A stretch of 33,617 nucleotides of DNA from Spirochaetes bacterium ADurb.Bin215 (lineage in GTDB: Bacteria > Spirochaetota > Spirochaetia > Treponematales > Treponemataceae): assembly GCA_002070025.1 (NCBI GenBank), contig MWCL01000017.1, positions 1-33,617 on the forward strand, in the 5' to 3' direction. The notes beneath the pieces are model-generated. The model was not told where the DNA came from. It did not search any database and saw only the letters and a list, made by a program, of their open reading frames with translations. A program made the position numbers and the translations under genes. Positions 22,207 to 33,291 of this stretch are shown here, piece by piece (position 1 is the stretch's first letter; the number at the start of each line of letters is the position of its first letter).

Positions 22207-23541
22207 ATGACCCAGATGAACCGCTTCGTTTTGTCAGTATTCCTTGTTTTTCTCGTCGCTTCCGCCGCTTTTTCCCGTGATTTGACGAATCCGCCCGAAG
22301 GATTTGTCGAAACGGCGGATGTCCGGGGAGACCTGTTTGACGACTGGCTGTCCGCCGGTATTTCCCCGCTCATGTCGCTTGCTTCCGACGAGGTTACCGA
22401 CCGCTTCGGCCGTGTATTTGCGGTACGCCGGGAACGGGACGACGAGAACGGTTCGCTCGCGGTCCGCATCCAGGCAAGGGACGCGGCGGGAATTCAGGGG
22501 CAGTGGGTGTTGTACCGCAGTTTTTCCGACGGCCTTCCCCATGAAATCCGCCTATATCCTCTCGATAATTCCCATATATGGGTTTCCCTTTTCCCGGGGG
22601 ATTCCGGACCCGAATCCGGAAAATCGCGTCTTGATCTGGTCCTCTATGGTTCTACCGCCGTGTCCGGTATCCCGGTCGGCGTTCCGCTCGTAAAACTCTA
22701 TACCGCGTCGTTTCAGGACATCATGCTCATGACCCGCGCGCTCGTCCCCTGGGATCTTCTTGACCATCATGTCGATGATTACGCGGCGGCCCGCTCGGCG
22801 GTGTCGGTTATCCGTGACCGCCTGCCGTCGCTGGTGTATCTTGATGACGGGGCTTTTGATCATGACGGCCGGCCGGTCCATATACGGGACGGGTCGCCCC
22901 AGCGTCCCGCTGAAGTGCTTTCCGCGCTCGGTCCGGGGCAGACTCCGGACAATATCGCCGGAGGCGTGAACTGTTCGGGGTTCGCCAAGTGGATTGTTGA
23001 CGGAATCGTGTACCCGGAAGCGGGATCACGGCTCTTCCTTGATCCGCTCAAGAAACAGACCGATTCCCCCGAAACTCATTTCACCGAGCCCTTCAGGGAA
23101 TCCCGCGATGTTTTTTTCGCCCTGGACTGGACCCGTCAGCTCGCGAGCGCGGTTGTGTCCCTTGGCGGACGAGGAACGGTGCTTCCCGCCGAATCGGGTG
23201 TTGATGTAACTGCAGACCCCTTTCCGGGCTTCGCCCGGCATGTTCCCGGAGTCGGGTACCGTTCCGGGGCCCTGCAATCACTGTTGTACTGGCTCGCCAT
23301 CCGGGAGAGCGGCCATATGTACCTCGCGGCGATAAGCCGTGAACGGGGAGATCCCCCATTGCGACAATATCATCATATTGCCGTGTTGTTTCCTTATTTT
23401 GACGAAAACGGACAATTTACCATAACGGTATTCGAAAGTGCTGCGGAAACACCGTATCCGCTGTTTGTCTCCAGAAACGATGATGCGTATATTCATCTGG
23501 TACGGGTACGCTGTCCGGAAAAGGGACGTTTTATTCCGTAA
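22207..23541 (+). CDS. Exported protein with NlpC/P60-like Cys and His motifs, possible amidase
   Basis: From ATG 22207 the product has 444 residues with a clear signal peptide (FVLSVFLVFLVASAAFS, cleavage near AFS-RD), so it is periplasmic. I do not recognise the full-length family. The central motif GGVNCSGFAKWIVDG (Cys256) closely resembles the nucleophile motif of NlpC/P60 or CHAP peptidases, and the C-terminal YHHIAVLFPYF (His389/His390) followed by an ENG turn resembles their His strand. The spacing of about 130 residues between Cys and His is much longer than usual, so an insertion would be needed. It opens the envelope cluster leading to exbBD-tonB. No Shine-Dalgarno precedes it; GATAAT at 22192-22197 lies 9 nt before the ATG. 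An upstream GTG at 22180 is less likely. Confidence 0.65.
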   Translation: MTQMNRFVLSVFLVFLVASAAFSRDLTNPPEGFVETADVRGDLFDDWLSAGISPLMSLASDEVTDRFGRVFAVRRERDDENGSLAVRIQARDAAGIQGQWVLYRSFSDGLPHEIRLYPLDNSHIWVSLFPGDSGPESGKSRLDLVLYGSTAVSGIPVGVPLVKLYTASFQDIMLMTRALVPWDLLDHHVDDYAAARSAVSVIRDRLPSLVYLDDGAFDHDGRPVHIRDGSPQRPAEVLSALGPGQTPDNIAGGVNCSGFAKWIVDGIVYPEAGSRLFLDPLKKQTDSPETHFTEPFRESRDVFFALDWTRQLASAVVSLGGRGTVLPAESGVDVTADPFPGFARHVPGVGYRSGALQSLLYWLAIRESGHMYLAAISRERGDPPLRQYHHIAVLFPYFDENGQFTITVFESAAETPYPLFVSRNDDAYIHLVRVRCPEKGRFIP

Positions 23542-23600
23542 AAAACGTGTTACCTTTACGGGATACCCGGTATTTACCGGTTTGAGGTACGTTTCTGTTT

Positions 23601-25517
23601 ATGACTACTACTGCACGCGCTTCAGCAATTGTTCTTTTCCTCTTCTTCGCCGGAGTCCCGGGCGCCTCCGAGACCGCCGTACGCGACGTGTTCGAACAGG
23701 CTCAATCCGCCGCGTCTCCCGCGGAATCGATACGAATTCTTGAAAAAGGTTTGCCCGATTCGGGCGAATGGCGTTTTTTGTACCTCATGGAAATAACCCG
23801 GCTGTATGGAAATCTTGCGGACTGGCCGTCCGCGCTCACCGCGGTTAATCGCATTACACCTGACATGATTCCCCCGGCGCATGCTGACCGGCATGCCTAT
23901 TTGCTTGCCCTTGCCCGCGAAAACACCGGCGATACCGGTGCCGCCGAACAAACGTATCATGACCGGATCTTCGGCTCCGAAGCCCGTGAACCGCTTCTGT
24001 ATTTGGGATATCTGCGGCTTTCGTCCGCAGGAGCGCAAAAAACGCTTGCCCGTATGGACGCCATGCTACCGGATCTCCGGAAAACCGATCCTGACTCCTG
24101 GCTGTTGTCCCGGTATCTCGGGGGACTTGTCGCGGTCAGGGAAGGGCAATGGGCTTTCGCCGCGGATCTTTTTTCCCTCGTTCTCGACGGTCCTGAACGG
24201 GCGCCAGAAGAGTATCTCCCCTGGGCTTCCTTCTATCATGGATGGAGCTTGTACCGGACCGGGACCTGGGAAAAAGCGTATGGCGCCCTGTCGTTGTATC
24301 TCGAAAAATTTCCGGATCATGAGCGGGTGTGGCAGGCCTCAACCGCAGCGGCTTTTTGCGCCATGCAGACCGGCCGCGACCCGCTCCGTCACGCGGATAG
24401 GGCGGTTTCCCGCGCGCCGACTCCCCGTGACCGCGCGGAAGGGCTCCTTTTCAAGGCATCCATACTGCTCGACCGGGGCGACCACGCCGGTGCGGCAACA
24501 CTACTGCTTTCTGTCGCAGACGGTACCGCTACGTCGGGTTTGACCGTGTTTTCACCGCGCGCGCGATTCATGCTGGCGGATGCCGCGTTTTCCCGCCGGG
24601 ATTTTGCCGAAGCGGAAAAGCACTGGCTCGCGGTCTACCGTGATTTTTCCGACGACCCGCTTGCGGAGGAAGCTCTTTTCCGGGCGGGAGAACAGTGGTA
24701 CCTGCAGGATCGGGCGGACCGGGCGGTGCAGTTATTCACCCGGTATCGGCAAAACCATCCGAATGGAAAATATACCGATCTTGTATTGAAAAATGGCGGG
24801 GAAGCCCTTCGCATGCAGGGAAAAACCGATCTCGCCATCCTCTGGTGGGAATCGTTCGCAACCCGTTTCCCCAAAAGCCGGCTCATGCCCCGTGTATTGA
24901 ACGATCTTGTTTCCGCCTATCGTGATTCCGGCGATTACGCCGCCGCGCTCCGCATGGCGAGAACCTATGCCAATGACTATCCCCGCGAAGCGGAAGCCGA
25001 CCGGATTGCCGGTGAAATTGAAACGCTCGAACTGCTCAACCGGGGGGCCGCTCCCGATACTGCAGCAGTCGCGGTTGAATATCGAAGACTCGGTGGTGCG
25101 GAAACAGGCGAAGGCCGTTCCAAAGCACTGGTTCTCGCGCGGATCTATCTTGCGGACGCGGGCCGGCACGCGGAAGGCCGGCGGATTCTTGAAGAAGTAA
25201 CAGCAACCCTTCCCCGGAACACGGCCATGCTGTCCCGGACGGACCGCGCGGTATACGCGGGCGCGGAAATGCTGCTGGGTAACCATTTACGGGAAACCGG
25301 CGATTTTTCCGCCGCATCCCGGGCCTTCCTGTCGGCGGGGACCCTGTTTGCGCCCATAGACGGCGAACGCGCCGCCGAAGCACTCTACGGCGCAGTAGAC
25401 AGTTTTCTGAGGACTGACCGCCGCGGAGACGCGGAAAAGGCCCTTGAAACCATGCGTTCGTCCTGGCCGCGTTCGGTCTGGACACAACGGGCCGCCCGTC
25501 TCCTGGGCGCTGAATAA
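23601..25517 (+). CDS. Periplasmic TPR-repeat protein
   Basis: A 638-residue exported protein with signal peptide (AIVLFLFFAGVPGAS-ET) and no lipobox cysteine. Most of the rest is helical TPR-like repeats, including ADLFSLVLDGPERA, ARFMLADAAFSRRDFAEAEKHW and AVQLFTRYRQNHPNGKY. The last type resembles the YbgF/BamD repeats used in Tol-Pal and outer-membrane assembly. It lies 59 bp after the putative amidase and 11 bp before the barrel gene, so it is probably part of the same envelope complex, perhaps as a scaffold. No Shine-Dalgarno is at the usual distance; GAGG is 13 nt from the ATG. The precise role is unknown. Confidence 0.75.
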   Translation: MTTTARASAIVLFLFFAGVPGASETAVRDVFEQAQSAASPAESIRILEKGLPDSGEWRFLYLMEITRLYGNLADWPSALTAVNRITPDMIPPAHADRHAYLLALARENTGDTGAAEQTYHDRIFGSEAREPLLYLGYLRLSSAGAQKTLARMDAMLPDLRKTDPDSWLLSRYLGGLVAVREGQWAFAADLFSLVLDGPERAPEEYLPWASFYHGWSLYRTGTWEKAYGALSLYLEKFPDHERVWQASTAAAFCAMQTGRDPLRHADRAVSRAPTPRDRAEGLLFKASILLDRGDHAGAATLLLSVADGTATSGLTVFSPRARFMLADAAFSRRDFAEAEKHWLAVYRDFSDDPLAEEALFRAGEQWYLQDRADRAVQLFTRYRQNHPNGKYTDLVLKNGGEALRMQGKTDLAILWWESFATRFPKSRLMPRVLNDLVSAYRDSGDYAAALRMARTYANDYPREAEADRIAGEIETLELLNRGAAPDTAAVAVEYRRLGGAETGEGRSKALVLARIYLADAGRHAEGRRILEEVTATLPRNTAMLSRTDRAVYAGAEMLLGNHLRETGDFSAASRAFLSAGTLFAPIDGERAAEALYGAVDSFLRTDRRGDAEKALETMRSSWPRSVWTQRAARLLGAE

Positions 25518-25528
25518 GGGAGTTAGCT

Positions 25529-27163
25529 GTGATACCATTGAAAACCATGAAAAAGACTGAATGCGCGGCCCGTTGTGCCGTTTTCGTTGTTTTGCTGGCC
25601 GGACTGCCGGTGTTCGGAGAAACGGTATCGGTTCCGGATATTGAAACACGCATCCGTAATTCGGGAAACGAAGTTCCTTCGTCGGCGCTCCCGGTTTTCC
25701 GCCTTCCGCCACCGGTTGAACTGCCTGAGGAACCGGACCGGGCTGAACCCGTCGTTCAGACAGAACCGGTTTCCCCCGATCCCGCACCGCCCGTGGAAAC
25801 CGGTGTAGTTGCTGATGTCAAACCGGCCGTTACCGGCCATGCGAGCGTAGGGTCCGGCTATCCGGGGAATCTTGCCGGCGAATTTGCCGTAGCACAGCCT
25901 GAAGGCGCGTATCCAGGCTATTCCGCCCGTTTCGGGTATGCCTCAGCGGACGGCTACGGGGGAAAGGATCTCGGAAGCGGCTTCTTTGACCGGTCTGTCG
26001 GTTTGTCGCTCCGGGCCTTCAGTGAAACCGGTACGCATCCCTGGTATGCGGCCGTTTCCATAGGGGACCGGGCAAACGGTCTCCAGGGAGTTCATCCCGC
26101 CTATTCAAGCATTTCCCGCCGGCTTGCCGGGGTAAACGCCGGAGTCGATCTGTATTCCTTTGGAGAAAACGGTCCGCTCCTGTCGATTTTTCTGGACAGT
26201 CAGGTTTTTTCTTCGACCGCCGAACGCGGGTACGCGGATCCGCAATTGGGTGCTGATATCGATGATTACCAGGGATATTATCTTTCCCCGGGAGTCCGCC
26301 TTACCATAACCCCGGCGCAATTCCGCCTGTTCCTGGATGTTACCTATGCCCTTGATACGGTGGTTGATCTGGACGATCTTCATGCCGTTTCGGCATCGTT
26401 TTCCGCGTTCCGTGCGTTCGGCTCGCTTGATCTGGGCGCCGGTGCGGAATTTCACAGTGATACCGAAGAACGGTATCTCATACCTTTTTTCGCACGCCTC
26501 GACTGGAATCCGGAAGACGGTCTTTTTGGCCCGGTTTCCCTTTCCGGCGGGCTCCGTTCGGAACGGAGAACGTTGTTCGATCTTGCCCGCGAAGATCCCT
26601 TTGTCTACCTTGGCGGTATGCCGGTTCACGCGGCCGACTGGTTCGGATCATTCAGTGTGACGGTCAAGCCGCTCACCGATGTCCGCCTCTCGTCGTCTGT
26701 CGATTACCGCAAGACCGCTTTTGACCGTGCCTATCCGGTTCTCACGGACGCGTTTACTCCTGACCAGCGGGTTTTCTGGACGCTCGCCGACCGCGAGAGC
26801 CTGGTTGTCGCCGCGGGTATTATGTATACCGGTGAACTTTTCTCGGTTGAAACAGGATACCGCGGTGAGCTCATGGACGAACTGTGGGCGTCGCATCTCC
26901 ATGAAGTGAACGTGACGGTGTCGGTCCATGATCCGGCTCCCCGAAGCTTCTGGGCAGCAGAAGCTACGCTCGTGGTAATGCCCGATTCGGACGAATTGCC
27001 GCGCGCCGGCCTCTCCGGACGCGTCTACCCGCTGCCGCGGCTGTCCGTAACGCTCGCCTTTGAAGACATCCTGCCGTCCTTGTTCGACGAGGTTCGCATG
27101 ATAAACGACTTGTACCGGGAACGGAGCGGATCGGTGCTCCTCTCGGCCCGGTTTGAATTCTGA
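25529..27163 (+). CDS. Outer-membrane beta-barrel protein with TonB-box-like N-terminus
   Basis: A 544-residue exported protein. The GTG start at 25529 is chosen because AAGGGAG lies about 6 nt upstream; an ATG at 25547 also begins before the signal sequence. After the signal peptide (AVFVVLLAGLPVFG) the mature end reads ETVSVPDIETRI, which fits the TonB-box pattern (acidic-T-hydrophobic-x-V). A proline/glutamate-rich linker of about 50 residues follows, then about 430 residues of alternating beta-strand sequence ending in ARFEF, the C-terminal phenylalanine expected for BAM-inserted barrels. I see no canonical plug domain. exbB, exbD and tonB follow directly, which suggests it is an energised receptor or a partner of that system. 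No ligand can be named. Confidence 0.7.
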   Translation: MIPLKTMKKTECAARCAVFVVLLAGLPVFGETVSVPDIETRIRNSGNEVPSSALPVFRLPPPVELPEEPDRAEPVVQTEPVSPDPAPPVETGVVADVKPAVTGHASVGSGYPGNLAGEFAVAQPEGAYPGYSARFGYASADGYGGKDLGSGFFDRSVGLSLRAFSETGTHPWYAAVSIGDRANGLQGVHPAYSSISRRLAGVNAGVDLYSFGENGPLLSIFLDSQVFSSTAERGYADPQLGADIDDYQGYYLSPGVRLTITPAQFRLFLDVTYALDTVVDLDDLHAVSASFSAFRAFGSLDLGAGAEFHSDTEERYLIPFFARLDWNPEDGLFGPVSLSGGLRSERRTLFDLAREDPFVYLGGMPVHAADWFGSFSVTVKPLTDVRLSSSVDYRKTAFDRAYPVLTDAFTPDQRVFWTLADRESLVVAAGIMYTGELFSVETGYRGELMDELWASHLHEVNVTVSVHDPAPRSFWAAEATLVVMPDSDELPRAGLSGRVYPLPRLSVTLAFEDILPSLFDEVRMINDLYRERSGSVLLSARFEF

Positions 27164-27187
27164 CAGTAACGAGGAATGGAGGTTCCC

Positions 27188-27805
27188 ATGATTGCAATTC
27201 TGATTTCCGGCGGTCCCGCCATGATACCCATCCTGCTGTGCGCGCTGATCGCCACGGTCATCATCATTGAGCGGGTCAGGTATTTTTCGTCAATAAAGAA
27301 AGGCCAGCGGGATCTGCTTCCGCGCCTTAAAAGCTCCCTGGACAAGGGTCATTACGACGAGGCCGCCGCAATCTGCGACACGGTCGAAAGCCCGGTGTCC
27401 CGTCTCATGAAAACGGGTATCGCGTACCGGGAGTACAGCGAGGCGGCCATCAAGGAAGCCGTCATGAACCAGGCGAACCGTGAAATCCCGCGGCTGGAGC
27501 GATATCTCTCCACATTGGGGACGATAGCGAATATCGCGACACTGCTCGGCCTTCTGGGTACGGTTACCGGTAACATCCAGGCGTTCGGAGTACTCGGCGA
27601 CATGGGAACCATGGGAAATCCGGCCGTACTCGCCGGAGCCATTGCCCAGGCGCTGGTTACCACGGCTACCGGACTCATAGTCTCGATCCCGGCCATTATT
27701 TTCTATAATTACTTCATTGCCGAAGTAAACCGGATGATCACCGAAATGGAATCTTCCGTCAGTGATCTTGTCCTTTTGCTCGCGGCGGGGAAACGGAATT
27801 CATGA
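27188..27805 (+). CDS. exbB: ExbB/TolQ/MotA-family proton channel subunit
   Basis: A 205-residue inner-membrane protein with transmembrane segments near 10-28, 108-128 and 152-176. The family motif TLGTIANIATLLGLLGTVTG and the following ALVTTATGLIVSIPA are diagnostic of ExbB/TolQ proton channel proteins, which form a pentamer around ExbD/TolR and couple proton flow to TonB or TolA motion. The start at 27188 has GGAGG 5 nt upstream; the in-frame ATG at 27176 has no usable site. It overlaps exbD by 4 bp (ATGA). Linkage to a tonB gene favours the ExbB name over TolQ, but the two cannot be told apart by sequence alone. Confidence 0.9.
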   Translation: MIAILISGGPAMIPILLCALIATVIIIERVRYFSSIKKGQRDLLPRLKSSLDKGHYDEAAAICDTVESPVSRLMKTGIAYREYSEAAIKEAVMNQANREIPRLERYLSTLGTIANIATLLGLLGTVTGNIQAFGVLGDMGTMGNPAVLAGAIAQALVTTATGLIVSIPAIIFYNYFIAEVNRMITEMESSVSDLVLLLAAGKRNS

Positions 27806-28206
27806 AGTTCAAACGGAGACTCGAAGCACGGGCAGGGGTAGACCTGGTTCCCATGATCGACGTTGTTTTCCAGCTCATTCTCTTCTTTTTGGTGGCCACG
27901 ACCTTCGCGGTATTGCCGGGGATTGAACTCGATCTTCCGGTATCGTCCACGGCGGAAAGCACCCGGACCAACGGAATTACCATTTCGGTGTCCCGTGAAG
28001 GGCAGCTCTACGTGAATTCTGACGAAGTTGCCCTTGAGGCACTGGATGAAGCGCTCATGGCTGTCGCCGTCGACGGCGCCCGCGAAAAGGTTCCGGTCAG
28101 TCTGGAAGCCGACGCGGCTGTCCCGAACGGGCAGATCGTGCAGATTCTGGATTCGCTGCGGCGAACCGGATTTACGGGCGTAAACCTCCGGACCATGGAC
28201 AGGTAG
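27802..28206 (+). CDS. exbD: ExbD/TolR-family protein
   Basis: A 134-residue protein with one N-terminal transmembrane helix that carries the essential aspartate (Asp20 in VPMIDVVFQLILFFL), then a periplasmic domain. The aspartate is the proton-carrying residue of ExbD/TolR. DLVPMIDVVFQLILFF is the family hallmark. Its ATG overlaps the exbB stop by 4 bp, showing translational coupling, and tonB starts 4 bp after its stop. Confidence 0.93.
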   Translation: MKFKRRLEARAGVDLVPMIDVVFQLILFFLVATTFAVLPGIELDLPVSSTAESTRTNGITISVSREGQLYVNSDEVALEALDEALMAVAVDGAREKVPVSLEADAAVPNGQIVQILDSLRRTGFTGVNLRTMDR

Positions 28207-28210
28207 CCGC

Positions 28211-29173
28211 ATGCTTGAACTGGACGCACGGGACAAAAACAGACTTGCCCAAAGCTCGATCATCGCGGCAGCGGTCTGGCTCGTCATGCTGATTATTTTC
28301 ACGCTGTTACCGGTTATGCGGGATGTCCCCGAGGAACGCGCTTTCCCCGAGGTGCGCATCACGCTGAACCGGGAAGATCCGGTGCCGGTACAAACCCGGA
28401 CGGTAGCGCCGGCGACGAGTTCAGCCGAACCGGCCGTACGTCCCGCCGCGGCGCGGCAGGAAAAATCCGCACAGAAACCCGCCAACGCGCCGCCGGTGCG
28501 GCAAAAAACGTCTTCGGGGCTCGGAATCCCGGATTTTCAGAGTACGTCCGGCCGGGAAGCGGCCGCGCCCTCGGGAGAATATCTTGATTTTTCCAGCGAT
28601 CGGCCACGGGAACAGACGGTCCAGGAACCCGGTCCGGTACTCCGCGAATTTGAGGGCAGTGCGGCACGCGTTGACGAACCGGCCGCGCGGCAGGGAACCG
28701 CCACCGTGGAGGGCGGAAGCCGCGTTTCCGCTGCTTCGGATGAAACGCTCCAGGCCCTGGACCGGATCCGTGCCGGCAATGAGGGCGGTGTGACCGTTCC
28801 GGACGGAGCCGCTTCCACGTCTCCCGCTTCGACAACCGGCCGCACCGCGGACACCGACGTGGCAACCACGCCCGGCATGGTAGGCCCCATAACCTTTGAA
28901 GGCACTGCCCGCCGCCTCCTGTATCCGGCGAAGCCCGGGATCATCCTGCCTCCCCATTTGGCGCGGCTCATTGATTCGGACCGATCGGTAACGGTGCTCT
29001 TTGTTGTCCGTGCGGACGGCTCGGTTCCGGCTTCCCTTGTCCGGTTCAGCCCCTCGGCTCTTTTACCGCCCGAGGTTCAGAATTATCTTAAAAACGAGTT
29101 TTCAACCTGGCGGTTTGAACGCGGCAGCGACGATGGACAGGCGCGGTTCCTGTATAGTATAACAGTACAATGA
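28211..29173 (+). CDS. tonB: TonB-like energy transducer
   Basis: A 320-residue protein with a short cytoplasmic end, one transmembrane helix (about 14-34, SSIIAAAVWLVMLIIFTLL), a long low-complexity Ala/Pro/Glu/Arg linker (about 40-230) able to span the periplasm, and a C-terminal domain (about 235-320) whose end (VTVLFVVRADGSV...NYLKNEFSTWRFERG) follows the TonB C-terminal pattern. It should carry energy from ExbB/ExbD to an outer-membrane protein, with the barrel encoded three genes upstream as the obvious candidate. The linker is less proline-rich than in E. coli TonB. The stop overlaps the next start (ATGA). TolA is an alternative name. Confidence 0.82.
   Translation: MLELDARDKNRLAQSSIIAAAVWLVMLIIFTLLPVMRDVPEERAFPEVRITLNREDPVPVQTRTVAPATSSAEPAVRPAAARQEKSAQKPANAPPVRQKTSSGLGIPDFQSTSGREAAAPSGEYLDFSSDRPREQTVQEPGPVLREFEGSAARVDEPAARQGTATVEGGSRVSAASDETLQALDRIRAGNEGGVTVPDGAASTSPASTTGRTADTDVATTPGMVGPITFEGTARRLLYPAKPGIILPPHLARLIDSDRSVTVLFVVRADGSVPASLVRFSPSALLPPEVQNYLKNEFSTWRFERGSDDGQARFLYSITVQ
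29134..29163 (+). promoter_or_regulatory. internal promoter ahead of the HAD gene, predicted leaderless
   Basis: TGGACA at 29134-29139 and TATAAC at 29158-29163 (each 5 of 6 to consensus) are 18 bp apart, inside the last codons of tonB. Only 6 nt separate the -10 box from the ATG at 29170. No Shine-Dalgarno precedes that ATG. Confidence 0.45.
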
Positions 29174-29859
29174 TATCCGGAATCGACGCCGTTGCGTTTG
29201 ATATTGACGGCACCCTCTATCCGAATTCAGCCCTGTACCGGCGCATGATTCCCTTTTTTTTGACCAATGTCCGCTTCATGCTGGCGTTCAGCGAAGTCCG
29301 TCGCGAAATACGCCGCTGGCAGGAAGCCCATCCCGGCGAAGCGCACGAGGACTTCTTCACCTGGCAGGCGTCCCTCATGGCCGGGCGTCTCGGCGGACCG
29401 GTTGAGGCCATGAAAACAACGATCAGGGAACGTATTTACGAGGGCTGGCAACCGGTGTTCGCAAAAGTCCGCCCCTTTCCCCATATCCACGCCTGTTTCA
29501 CCGCCTTCCGCGACGCCGGGCTGAAATTGGGGATTCTGTCGGATTTTCTCCCCTCCCAGAAAGGATCGGTATGGGGTGTAGCCCCGCTCTGCGACGTGGT
29601 CATGGGGTCGGAAGAAACCGGCGCGCTCAAGCCCTCTCCGGTTCCGTTCCTGGCTCTTGCCGACGCACTCGGCGTTTCTCCCGATCGTATGTTATACGTG
29701 GGAAACTCGGTTTCTTCCGACGTACAAGGCGCTTCCGCCGTCGGCATGAAGACGGCCTGCGTCGTTCATCCCCTGGCGCTCACCGCAGGATACCGAATTC
29801 CCGGTGCGGACATTTCTTTTTCTTCCTATCGCAAATTGACCCGGAATGTGCTAAAATAA
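29170..29859 (+). CDS. HAD-superfamily phosphatase
   Basis: A 229-residue cytoplasmic hydrolase with all four HAD motifs: DIDGT with catalytic Asp11 and Asp13, Ser124 in ILSDF, Lys154 in ALKPSP, and YVGNSVSSD with the terminal acidic residue near 184. A helical cap (about 20-100) marks a C1-type cap, as in phosphoglycolate phosphatase, 5'-nucleotidase YjjG and epoxide-hydrolase-like members. The substrate cannot be told. Its ATG overlaps the tonB stop by 4 bp, so it can be translated with the envelope operon, but it also seems to have its own promoter. Confidence 0.88.
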   Translation: MISGIDAVAFDIDGTLYPNSALYRRMIPFFLTNVRFMLAFSEVRREIRRWQEAHPGEAHEDFFTWQASLMAGRLGGPVEAMKTTIRERIYEGWQPVFAKVRPFPHIHACFTAFRDAGLKLGILSDFLPSQKGSVWGVAPLCDVVMGSEETGALKPSPVPFLALADALGVSPDRMLYVGNSVSSDVQGASAVGMKTACVVHPLALTAGYRIPGADISFSSYRKLTRNVLK

Positions 29860-29895: not shown

Positions 29896-32800
29896 ATGAT
29901 TTTTACTCCCGGAAACATACTTACCCTCTGCATAACCATTGTCCTGTTGGTGCTCTACCGGCAGATGGACAAGGGAAACCGTTCCATCGAGAAGGTAAAG
30001 CGGTTCGGAGACAAACTCAAGGATGATCTGGCCCTGTTTTTAAAGGAACGCACCGCGAAGCTCGAGGAATCCTCGCTCGCGCTGGACGTTCAGCAAACCA
30101 AAGCGGTCGCCGCGGTCAAGCGGCTCGAGGCTATCCGGGCCGACCTGGAAAAAAAAGAAGCGGACCTTCTTGAGCGTACAAAGGCCGTATCTTCCTTCGG
30201 AAAACAGATCGCGTCGTATGATGAAACAATCTCCCGTCTTCTTGAAATGACGAGACAGGCTGAAATCAATCTCGAGAAAATTACCGGTGAGTCCGAGTTT
30301 GTGGACAAGCTGGGACGAACGCTTGCCGCGTCCCAAAAACAGCTCCATGAAATACATGCCGGCATCCCGGCGCTTCGGGATGAATTTTCCCGGGAAAACC
30401 GCAATGCCCTTGAATCGGTGTATGCCGACACGGTAGAAACCTTCACCGCAACCCTTGGCGAACTCGAGAGCCGGATTGACGCGGCGCGCCGTGAATCCGC
30501 CACCCTGGTGGATTCCTCACGGGCTGAACTGGATCGCATTTTCTCCCGCGCGACCGATGAAGCCGTGCGGCGCGCGGATGCCCTTGAAGATACCGCCTTC
30601 CAGAAACTCAAGGAACAGGCGACCGAGCGGCTGGTTCATTTCAAGGATTCCTTCGAAGAAAAAGTGGGAAAACTGCATGAGCAGGCGAAGACCCGCATTA
30701 TTGAAACCCAGCAGATGGTCAAGGAGTTCAAGACAAACTGGAAGGCCGAAGCGGACGAATTCCTCGAGGCAACCCGGGCCGAAATCCGCTCGCTCGACGA
30801 TGAAAGTTCTTCATCCATTGCCGCCCTTCGTGAAAAACTGTCCTCAGCCGAATCGCTTGCCTGCGCCCGGTTTGAAGAATTTGAGGCCGAACTTCACCGT
30901 GTCGAGGCAGATCTCGACAAGAGTATCGGCGAAACCGCCCGCGTTTCACGCGAGAAGATCGAGTCTTTTGAACAGTCCATCGAGAACCGGCTTACCGGCG
31001 CCGAAAACGGCGCGTCGGAGCGGCTTTCCACTATTGAAACCCGTCTCGGTGAACTCGATTCCACCGTTACCCGCGCAATTGATACGGCCGGCAAAACTGC
31101 GGCCGCGCGGATCAATGAAATTTCGAAGGCGATTGATTCGTCCTTCGAGGTATACCGCACGGATGTGGAATACCGTCTGGAAAAGATGACGCATGTATTC
31201 TCGGATTCGGACAAACTCGAGGAGCAACTCCGGCTCAACCTGCGGGATACGGAACAGCGGGTTACCGATACCTTTGACCTGTATGTAAAAGATCAAAAAA
31301 CCCGTCAGGATGAATTCGAGAAGTCGTTGTTCGCTTCCGCCGATTCCATGACGGAACGCATGAATACGCTGGAATCCGGGCTGAATGAGCTGAAGTCCCG
31401 TGCGTACGACAATGTTTCCGAAAAACTCAAGATGTTTGAAGACGACTTCTTCGCGGATCTCGCCAAGCGGAGCGACGCCATTACCGCGGCCCTCGACGGG
31501 TGGAAGTCCAGTGTCGACGAGCGGCTGGAGAGCCTCTCCGCCGAAAACGAAGCGGAACGGCGCGACCTCGAAACGGAGTACACCGCCCGTCTCCAGGAGC
31601 GGCTCGCCGATATCGCCGAACAGTACCATGCACAGACAAAACGGCTGGAAGAACAGATTGCCGGGATCGAGACGGAGCTACGCGGCAAGATTACCGCGAG
31701 CGATCAGTCCATTCTGGACTTTGTCGAGCAATCGCGGCAGGAATTTGCCCACGCAAAGGATACCGCATCGCTCCATGTACAAAACGAGCTTTCGGCTCAT
31801 GCCATAACCGTACAGGAAATACTGCGAAAACAGGAACGGGAGCTTGAATCCCGAACCAAAGAGTTCATCGATTCCATCGAGTCGTCCCGTACCGAGGCCG
31901 AATCCATGCTCGAAGGCATCCGGGCGGACTTTACCACCTGGCAGACACGGAATGAACAGCAGTTCACCGAAGCAAAACGGATGCTCGATGACCGCATCGT
32001 ATCTCTTGATGATTCCGTCCGTTCGTCGATTGCCGACCTTGAGGCAGGATATCAGACCAATTACCGCGACTTTATCGCCGATACCGCCGAAGAACGCCGG
32101 GAAATCCGTGCGTCTCTCGACGCTCTGCGCGGGGACATAACGTCTTCCATGGAAGATTTCAGGCGGCGGTCAGTGGAAGCGCTGGAAGAGTTCAACGCGG
32201 CGTACGAAGAAATGACCTCGGGCACCGCCCTCCGTGTACGGGAGCATGCCGCGGAAACCGACCAGACAATCCGTTCCCTCAAATCCATGGTGCAGGATAT
32301 CCGCGAGTCGGTTGATCAGACCCGGGAACGTCTCTTCGGAAAGGTTCAAAGCGATGCCCAGTCGTTGAATCAGACCATTGAAGAAATTGACAAAAAGCAA
32401 AAAGCGTTCATTGCGCAAACCAGAATTTATGACCGTGCGGACGAGATGAAGGCGTCGCTCGAGACGAGTATAGAAAACATCAAGGATGAAATTTCCCGTC
32501 TCGATATCTACCGTGAAACCATGAATACGCTTGAAACACAGTACGGTAAGGTACGGAAGCTTGAAGAGGAAGCGAACCAGAAGCTCTCGAAGTTCATGGC
32601 GGAGAAAAAGCGCATAGATATCCTCGAGTCGGACTTTACCCGCCTTCTTGCATTGTCCGATTCCATTGACCGAAAAATATCCGAGCTTACCCTTACAAAT
32701 GACGATCTCCAGCAATACCAGGTGCAGATACGCCGGTTTGAAGAAAGCATCGCCGAAGTCAACACACGCTATGAACGGCTCGAAAAGAAAACCGTTGTCC

Positions 32801-33291
32801 TTGACCAAACGGTGGACGGCGTTGACCATGCCTTCGAGAATCTCCGGGATCTTGAAAAATCGCTCGAACAATGGAAAGAAGGCGTTTCCGGCATTCCGGA
32901 ACAGCTTGAAACCATCCGCGAAACACTCGATGTCCTTATGGCAAGCCGTGAAAAATCTGCGTTCATGATTGAAAAACTGGAAACGCTTGATTCGGTTCTG
33001 GAAGACGTGGAAGCGCGGACCGAGAAGATGCAGACTGCCCGGGAGTGGCTCGCGCGGACGGAAACCCGTCTGGAGGAAATCTCGAAACAGTCCCAGGACC
33101 AGCTCAAGCTTCTGGGCGATCTGTTGAAACAGGATAGCGCCGCAAAGAAAACCCGTGGCGCCCCGCCCATCGGTATCCGTGAAAATGTCGTGAAACTCGC
33201 GCATCAGGGATGGAAGGTTGACGAAATAGCCCGTGCGCTTCATCTTTCACGGGGCGAGGTTGAACTGATTCTGGAATTGCCCCAAAAATAA
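29896..33291 (+). CDS. SpiroCoCo-type giant coiled-coil membrane protein
   Basis: A 1131-residue protein. One N-terminal transmembrane helix (about 6-22, GNILTLCITIVLLVLY) is followed by roughly 1040 residues of almost unbroken Glu/Lys/Arg/Ala/Leu-rich coiled coil with few prolines. The last 45 residues form a small helix-turn-helix-like domain (ENVVKLAHQGWKVDEIARALHLSRGEVELILEL), of the type that ends YlxL/DUF2802 proteins near flagellar genes. This layout matches the spirochaete-restricted SpiroCoCo family, whose function is not established. If the helix is an anchor, the rod lies in the cytoplasm and could reach over 100 nm as a scaffold. A weak AAAGGG lies 9 nt before ATG 29896. The stop is 7 bp from the convergent ispF. 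Confidence 0.85.
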   Translation: MIFTPGNILTLCITIVLLVLYRQMDKGNRSIEKVKRFGDKLKDDLALFLKERTAKLEESSLALDVQQTKAVAAVKRLEAIRADLEKKEADLLERTKAVSSFGKQIASYDETISRLLEMTRQAEINLEKITGESEFVDKLGRTLAASQKQLHEIHAGIPALRDEFSRENRNALESVYADTVETFTATLGELESRIDAARRESATLVDSSRAELDRIFSRATDEAVRRADALEDTAFQKLKEQATERLVHFKDSFEEKVGKLHEQAKTRIIETQQMVKEFKTNWKAEADEFLEATRAEIRSLDDESSSSIAALREKLSSAESLACARFEEFEAELHRVEADLDKSIGETARVSREKIESFEQSIENRLTGAENGASERLSTIETRLGELDSTVTRAIDTAGKTAAARINEISKAIDSSFEVYRTDVEYRLEKMTHVFSDSDKLEEQLRLNLRDTEQRVTDTFDLYVKDQKTRQDEFEKSLFASADSMTERMNTLESGLNELKSRAYDNVSEKLKMFEDDFFADLAKRSDAITAALDGWKSSVDERLESLSAENEAERRDLETEYTARLQERLADIAEQYHAQTKRLEEQIAGIETELRGKITASDQSILDFVEQSRQEFAHAKDTASLHVQNELSAHAITVQEILRKQERELESRTKEFIDSIESSRTEAESMLEGIRADFTTWQTRNEQQFTEAKRMLDDRIVSLDDSVRSSIADLEAGYQTNYRDFIADTAEERREIRASLDALRGDITSSMEDFRRRSVEALEEFNAAYEEMTSGTALRVREHAAETDQTIRSLKSMVQDIRESVDQTRERLFGKVQSDAQSLNQTIEEIDKKQKAFIAQTRIYDRADEMKASLETSIENIKDEISRLDIYRETMNTLETQYGKVRKLEEEANQKLSKFMAEKKRIDILESDFTRLLALSDSIDRKISELTLTNDDLQQYQVQIRRFEESIAEVNTRYERLEKKTVVLDQTVDGVDHAFENLRDLEKSLEQWKEGVSGIPEQLETIRETLDVLMASREKSAFMIEKLETLDSVLEDVEARTEKMQTAREWLARTETRLEEISKQSQDQLKLLGDLLKQDSAAKKTRGAPPIGIRENVVKLAHQGWKVDEIARALHLSRGEVELILELPQK

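What the first reader, a model, noticed from the sequence alone, without database searches (positions are those of the whole stretch)
22207..29173. Self-contained envelope machine: amidase-like, TPR, TonB-box barrel, ExbB, ExbD, TonB
Six genes run in one direction with overlaps or short gaps. The barrel at 25529 begins after its signal with ETVSV, which fits a TonB box, yet has a proline-rich linker and no recognisable plug. With a periplasmic TPR protein and a cell-wall-hydrolase-like protein, this looks like a hybrid of Tol-Pal and TonB systems with a plug-less client, and could be a previously undescribed spirochaete transport or envelope-constriction system.
Basis: partly seen in the sequence, partly recalled or inferred. 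Interest (0 to 1): 0.62.

Follow-up and report, generated by a model that had tools for sequence, protein, structure and literature searches.

The report
Plugless TonB-driven outer-membrane barrel system
A conserved spirochaete operon pairs a complete TonB energy motor with an outer-membrane barrel that looks like a TonB-dependent receptor stripped of its plug but still carrying the TonB docking tag, suggesting that TonB does a job here other than pulling a plug aside.

Summary
The six co-directional genes (22207-29173) sit in a syntenic run, activase-AMI-TPR-barrel-ExbB-ExbD-TonB-HAD-SpiroCoCo, that recurs across the Spirochaetota; 17 of 38 independently fetched loci keep all six in order and 34 of 38 keep barrel-ExbB. 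AlphaFold gives a confident barrel behind a 70-residue disordered N-terminus with no plug. The best 50 PDB fold matches are all TonB-dependent receptors, and profile comparison with spirochaete TonB receptors gives 97% against 6% for a FadL control. The N-terminal tag is conserved; plugged TonB receptors of the same Treponema genomes carry the same tag (EILLPEVTTYI against NIELPEVTTVI). Eleven near-complete genomes have no recognisable plugged receptor, yet keep a single ExbB, the one beside this barrel. The sixth protein ends in a TonB-type domain. 'Amidase-like' is not supported: no known fold, Cys lost in several orthologues. 'Tol-Pal hybrid' is weak: TolB not found. Function is inferred: a TonB-energised, plug-free outer-membrane gate or link, with TPR (perhaps AMI) as periplasmic partner. 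New variant of a known kind.

The parts
22207..23541 (+). AMI: secreted 444-aa protein with NCSGF...DGI motif; fold without known relative; linked by gene order to ExbB/ExbD
   Evidence: ORF; no family hit; alignment; AF2 pLDDT 91.5; no significant PDB fold; AMI-ExbB adjacency in L050 and L068
23601..25517 (+). TPR: secreted, probably periplasmic TPR protein, YbgF/BamD-like repeats, no lipobox in the window copy
   Evidence: Pfam/NCBIfam; leader sequences; TPR-barrel pair conserved in 28 of 38 loci
25529..27163 (+). Barrel gene (probable start 25547): plug-free TonB-receptor-type outer-membrane barrel
   Evidence: AF2, Foldseek, hhalign with controls, profile match starting at 25547
25619..25654 (+). 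TonB-box-like tag ETVSVPDIETRI at the predicted mature N-terminus
   Evidence: Conserved in orthologues; same tag in plugged receptors of Treponema genomes
25655..25828 (+). Disordered proline-rich linker in the place where receptors have a plug
   Evidence: pLDDT below 50 over residues 1-20 and 24-68 of the mature protein
25829..27160 (+). Beta-barrel domain, 22-24 predicted strands
   Evidence: DSSP of the AF2 model; top 50 PDB matches all TonB-dependent receptors
27176..27805 (+). ExbB/TolQ-type channel subunit
   Evidence: PF01618 3e-32; invariant T129, T162, T163
27802..28206 (+). ExbD/TolR-type subunit with conserved TM Asp20
   Evidence: PF02472 5e-27; D20 conserved
28211..29173 (+). 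TonB-like protein: N-terminal TM helix, Pro-rich stretch, C-terminal TonB-type domain (28868-29170)
   Evidence: Family profile matches TonB C-terminal domains in the PDB, best E 3.7e-5; TM-helix His in orthologues outside the Treponema group
29170..29859 (+). HAD hydrolase, conserved neighbour (probably not part of the envelope complex)
   Evidence: TONB-HAD adjacency in 25 of 38 loci
29896..33291 (+). SpiroCoCo coiled-coil protein with N-terminal hydrophobic stretch, conserved neighbour
   Evidence: NF047515 9e-111; HAD-COCO adjacency in 24 of 38 loci

Best explanation
The cluster is a dedicated TonB system whose own client is a plug-free outer-membrane barrel related to the barrel domain of TonB-dependent receptors. 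Shown by computation: conserved operon; ExbB, ExbD and TonB homology; receptor-type barrel without plug; N-terminal tag equal to the tag at the TonB-box position of plugged receptors in the same genomes; retention of the motor where no plugged receptor is recognisable. Inferred: ExbB-ExbD use the proton gradient to move the TonB-like protein; its C-terminal domain captures the tag by strand addition and pulls the flexible proline-rich tail; because there is no plug to unfold, the pull shifts the barrel or the periplasmic partner that closes it. The TPR protein is the most likely lid or adaptor, since an open barrel of this width would leak. Most probable output: gating of transport or export of an unknown, probably large, substrate. 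Second: mechanical coupling of the outer membrane to the cell.
For: Synteny; AF2 barrel with disordered plug-free N-terminus; top 50 PDB folds all TonB receptors; hhalign 97% to two groups of spirochaete receptors against under 1% for reversed and 5.8% for FadL controls; conserved tag equal to that of plugged receptors; TonB C-terminal domain; ExbD Asp20 and ExbB Thr residues conserved; 11 near-complete genomes without recognisable plugged receptor keep only this ExbB besides MotA; strand addition of TonB boxes is established for FhuA (PMC11658791).
Against: No complex model could be run, so tag binding by this TonB is untested. In the window's own genus the plugged receptors have other N-terminal boxes and the genome has a second TonB. 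The tag is degenerate in some lineages (L054, L061). Strand number is 22-24, not fixed. The only non-receptor profile control is FadL. No substrate is known.
Confidence: 0.6

Rival explanations
1. Mechanical link: the barrel is a force anchor in the outer membrane and the TonB-ExbBD motor pulls it towards the cell body through tag and TPR protein, as a substitute for Tol-Pal in envelope constriction or outer-membrane stability; nothing is transported.
For: TolB not found in the own genome; TPR protein resembles YbgF/CpoB and ExbB/ExbD score slightly better on TolQ/TolR; cluster embedded among housekeeping genes and kept without nutrient receptors.
Against: Some relatives have no ExbB besides MotA (e.g. 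G020, G015, G005), so a constriction role would be dispensable; the effector domain is TonB-, not TolA-like; anchoring would not need a receptor-type barrel with strongly conserved non-transmembrane motifs.
Confidence: 0.25
2. The plug is supplied in trans: AMI or a TPR domain enters the barrel and is pulled or released, so the system is a split TonB-dependent transporter.
For: TPR and barrel are a stable pair (28 of 38 loci, and next to each other in lineages without ExbBD nearby). An open barrel of this width would be harmful (general knowledge).
Against: AMI occurs with ExbB-ExbD-TonB where TPR and barrel are missing (L050). Neither protein resembles a plug.
Confidence: 0.15
3. The barrel is unrelated to TonB receptors in mechanism: an ordinary porin-like protein that merely shares an operon with a TonB motor serving plugged receptors elsewhere in the genome.
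For: In several genomes (G099, G089, G094 and others) the cluster's ExbB is the only one and plugged receptors exist, so the motor probably does serve them; large barrels resemble each other in fold searches.
Against: Shared tag, adjacency in 34 of 38 loci, persistence of the motor in eleven genomes without recognisable plugged receptor, hhalign specificity.
Confidence: 0.1

Closest known systems
TonB-dependent receptors with TonB-ExbB-ExbD (BtuB, FepA, PirA, FrpB, OprC)
   Same: Barrel fold, N-terminal TonB-box-like tag, ExbB/ExbD/TonB partner genes
   Different: No plug domain; obligate neighbours TPR and AMI; kept where no plugged receptor is recognised
SusC/SusD (RagA/RagB) transporters of Bacteroidota
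   Same: Receptor-type barrel with a TPR-protein partner (RagA 22-stranded barrel, RagB TPR lid: abstract of PMC11817032)
   Different: SusC has a plug and SusD is an extracellular lipoprotein (own knowledge); here there is no plug, and the TPR protein has a plain signal peptide, so it is probably periplasmic
Tol-Pal (TolQ-TolR-TolA-TolB-Pal-CpoB)
   Same: TolQ/TolR-like motor, proline-rich effector, YbgF/CpoB-like TPR protein
   Different: No TolB found, effector domain TonB-like, client is a barrel instead of Pal
Myxococcus Agl-Glt gliding machine
   Same: TolQ/TolR-type motor, effector with TonB-like motif (GltG), periplasmic TPR proteins, outer-membrane proteins (PMC3169522)
   Different: Two TolR-type genes and FHA domain there; outer-membrane proteins OmpA- or autotransporter-like; genes in other clusters and order

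Membership tests
TonB-dependent receptor | Barrel of the 22-strand receptor type | tested here: met
   AF2, 22-24 strands; Foldseek; hhalign. Exact strand number not fixed
TonB-dependent receptor | N-terminal plug domain | tested here: not met
   No Pfam hit; first 70 mature residues disordered. So not filed as a member
TonB-dependent receptor | TonB box at the mature N-terminus | tested here: met
   By motif only: conserved tag equal to that of plugged receptors. Binding not tested
TonB-dependent receptor | Energised uptake of a substrate | not testable with these tools
   Needs experiment
TonB-ExbB-ExbD complex | ExbB and ExbD with the conserved channel residues | tested here: met
   PF01618, PF02472; D20, T129, T162, T163
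TonB-ExbB-ExbD complex | TonB protein with C-terminal TonB fold | tested here: met
   Family profile, best E 3.7e-5 to TonB domains; the single window sequence misses PF03544
Tol-Pal | TolB propeller | tested here: not met
   TIGR02800 finds nothing in the own genome, 95.5% complete
Tol-Pal | Pal lipoprotein | tested here: inconclusive
   Seven OmpA-domain proteins in the genome, Pal not singled out
Agl-Glt gliding machine | One TolQ-type and two TolR-type motor genes with FHA-TonB effector GltG | tested here: not met
   One ExbD and an effector without FHA domain
NlpC/P60-type amidase (gene 1) | Papain-like fold with catalytic Cys-His | tested here: not met
   No family hit; no significant fold match; NCSGF Cys missing in L056, L063, L065, L066

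The most novel reading that the evidence does not exclude
A TonB system in which force is applied to a naturally plugless receptor-type barrel and its periplasmic TPR partner, giving TonB a second mode of action (gating by a lid or tether, or trans-envelope mechanical coupling) that is old within the Spirochaetota and independent of nutrient receptors.
Probability: 0.5. Interest if true: 0.8.

Novelty: new variant of a known kind. Interest (0 to 1): 0.63.

Why it matters
TonB is taught as the machine that pulls the plug of nutrient receptors. A phylum-wide TonB motor bound by gene order to a receptor-type barrel without a plug, and kept where no plugged receptor can be recognised, is a natural separation of the two functions. 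It would allow a direct test of what TonB force does when there is no plug to unfold. It also gives spirochaetes, whose outer membrane is poorly understood, a conserved energised outer-membrane complex with no role found described. Searches of the open-licence literature held here found no description of a natural plugless TonB client: the only paper holding both 'plugless' and 'TonB' concerns pyocin import through FpvAI.

Tried and rejected
Amidase reading of gene 1: rejected for lack of any family or fold match and loss of the Cys in several orthologues. Single E. coli outer-membrane proteins as hhalign controls had no power, even for true receptors (an earlier run, used a wrong global-mode option and is void), so group profiles, reversed sequences and a FadL profile were used instead. 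LptD as a spirochaete barrel control failed, because PF04453 finds LptD over its cut-off in only one of 40 genomes. Pilus ushers as a large-barrel control were located but not fetched. Centring a genome search on Bacteroidota was not possible, so whether the TPR-barrel pair exists outside spirochaetes is untested. The negatives of the phylum scan are not firm: a loose first look scores at most three candidates per genome, and diverged barrels can be missed. G065 was dropped from the no-receptor list because a receptor fragment lies at a contig edge; G078 and G053 were dropped because they carry diverged receptor genes.

Full report
What is there. Window 22207-29173 holds six + strand genes with tight spacing: AMI (22207-23541), TPR (23601-25517), barrel (25529-27163, probable start 25547), ExbB (27176-27805), ExbD (27802-28206) and a TonB-like protein (28211-29173), followed by a HAD hydrolase and a SpiroCoCo coiled-coil protein and preceded by a 1507-aa activase. 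Pfam and NCBIfam recognise ExbB, ExbD, the TPR repeats, HAD and SpiroCoCo, but neither AMI, nor the barrel, nor (above cut-off) the TonB-like protein. The genome is a 2.6-Mb assembly in 189 contigs, 95.5% complete. The named hits place it among Treponema and other Spirochaetales, including Brucepastera parasyntrophica.

Synteny. Searches in the family, in named genome contigs and in the phylum, read with ORF and profile scans, show the order activase-AMI-TPR-barrel-ExbB-ExbD-TonB-HAD-SpiroCoCo again and again. Of the 38 contig loci brought in by ExbB, 34 have barrel-ExbB adjacent, 28 TPR-barrel, 35 ExbD-TonB, and 17 all six in order; many of the rest are cut by contig ends. The order also holds in other families of the class (L111, L112, L123-L126, L128), and TPR-barrel-ExbB-ExbD in other lineages of the phylum (L113-L117). 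In still more distant lineages the TPR-barrel pair stands without ExbBD next to it (L118, L120). In L050 the order is AMI-ExbB-ExbD-TonB, without TPR or barrel. So TPR-barrel and AMI-ExbB-ExbD-TonB behave as two modules.

The barrel. AlphaFold on 34 aligned relatives gives a mean pLDDT of 84.7. From residue 71 of the mature protein on, nearly every 10-residue block is above 85 and mostly strand; the first 70 residues are disordered, so no plug is encoded in this chain. Foldseek against the PDB returns 50 of 50 top hits from TonB-dependent receptors, E about 1e-12 to 1e-10, TM-score about 0.6 by query length. Profile comparison with plugged spirochaete receptors aligns the barrel to their barrel domain as far as the C-terminus (97%, E about 1e-10, for two separate receptor groups); reversed receptors give under 1% and a FadL profile 5.8%. 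By sequence alone no PDB entry is significant. I conclude that this is a receptor-type barrel that has no plug. Because a defining feature of the family was tested and not met, I do not file it as a TonB-dependent receptor.

The tag. ETVSV itself is not the conserved unit. The aligned orthologues keep I-x-[LV]-P-[DE]-[ILV]-x-T-x-[IV] shortly after the signal peptide. Distant lineages keep related forms such as EILVPTLLLEVED, EIKLPQVDINIED and EILLPEIDINIQD; it is degenerate in L054 and L061. The most telling result came from plugged receptors of Treponema genomes that also have the barrel. Their N-termini read AEITLPQVTTYI, GEIVLPEVTTYI, AEILLPEVTTFI and QELELPGITTTI, the same tag as NIELPEVTTVI of the barrel. 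The pattern occurs in 9 of 40 plugged receptors and 31 of 48 barrel sequences, never in 92,312 residues of neighbouring gene families or 22,341 residues of receptor bodies, and in 0.05 receptors on average after shuffling. As related sequences are not independent, these counts are descriptive. Colicin M has the box ETLTV, and strand addition of the FhuA TonB box to the TonB C-terminal domain is established (PMC11658791).

The motor. ExbD Asp20 and ExbB Thr129/162/163 are conserved. Both score a little better on TolQ/TolR than on ExbB/ExbD models, below all cut-offs. The TonB-like C-terminal domain, as a family profile, matches only solved TonB domains with significance, best E 3.7e-5. Orthologues outside the Treponema group keep a His in the TM helix, as E. 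coli TonB does (own knowledge); in the Treponema group Trp stands there in most.

Who is the client? G000 has a second, ordinary TonB locus on contig C13 with a plugged receptor, ExbB, two ExbD and TonB. Elsewhere the picture is cleaner. In G099, G089, G094, G098, G052, G114, G093 and G035 the only full ExbB besides MotA is the one beside the plugless barrel, while a plugged receptor with the tag, or in G114 a near form of it, is present. In G001, G008, G014, G024, G028, G047, G054, G081, G092, G096 and G115 no plug reaches the cut-off and a second receptor profile finds nothing, yet the cluster and its ExbB remain. So the motor is tied to the plugless barrel and probably serves plugged receptors as well where they exist. 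Some relatives have no ExbB besides MotA, among them a 1.1-Mb genome (G020), so the system is dispensable there.

Gene 1. AMI is predicted with very high confidence (91.5) but has no significant relative among solved folds; weak hits to protein-glutaminase and SpvD at most hint at a papain-like core. The Cys of NCSGF is missing in L056, L063, L065 and L066. It should be called a secreted protein of unknown fold tied to this motor, not an amidase.

Mechanism. Shown by computation: anatomy, homology, conservation, shared tag, genomic association. Inferred: TonB captures the tag by strand addition and pulls the proline-rich tail. With no plug to unfold, the pull must act on the barrel itself or on a partner closing its mouth. 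The TPR protein is the most stable partner and the best lid candidate. Transport or export gating is my first choice, because the barrel carries strongly conserved motifs (DGYGxxxxGxGFFxR, GLQG, DWFG, WLD) and the system is dispensable in some relatives. A mechanical link is second.

Novelty. Searches of open-licence papers for SpiroCoCo, Treponema with ExbB/ExbD/TonB, spirochaetes with Tol-Pal and TonB and plugless with TonB found no description of such a system. I rate it a new variant of a known kind. Limits: no complex model, few barrel control families, no search outside spirochaetes, no experiment.

Noticed in passing
TPR orthologues: L043, L045-L049, L051, L054, L056, L060-L062, L065, L066: The TPR protein is about 950-1030 aa in most lineages and only about 640-670 aa in the window's genus, a large size change inside a conserved operon.
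   Followed up: no
L164 (G000 contig C13) 192-4894; L001: A second TonB locus of this genome: a 727-aa protein that looks caspase-like by eye, an 852-aa plugged receptor with an N-terminal extension, then ExbB, two ExbD and a canonical TonB.
   Followed up: partly
L050 5728-9502: AMI-ExbB-ExbD-TonB followed by a small 165-aa secreted protein that could be a small barrel, in place of TPR and the large barrel.
   Followed up: no
window 29896-33291: SpiroCoCo coiled-coil protein with N-terminal hydrophobic stretch and C-terminal HTH-like end is a near-constant neighbour of the cluster; no paper in the held library names it.
   Followed up: no
G020 (L203) and 39 other genomes of the family: PF04453 finds LptD over its cut-off only in the 1.1-Mb genome G020 among 40 genomes of the family.
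   Followed up: no
L044-L053, L066, L069 against the Treponema-group TonB-like proteins: The TM-helix His of TonB is present in orthologues outside the Treponema group and replaced, mostly by Trp, within it.
   Followed up: no
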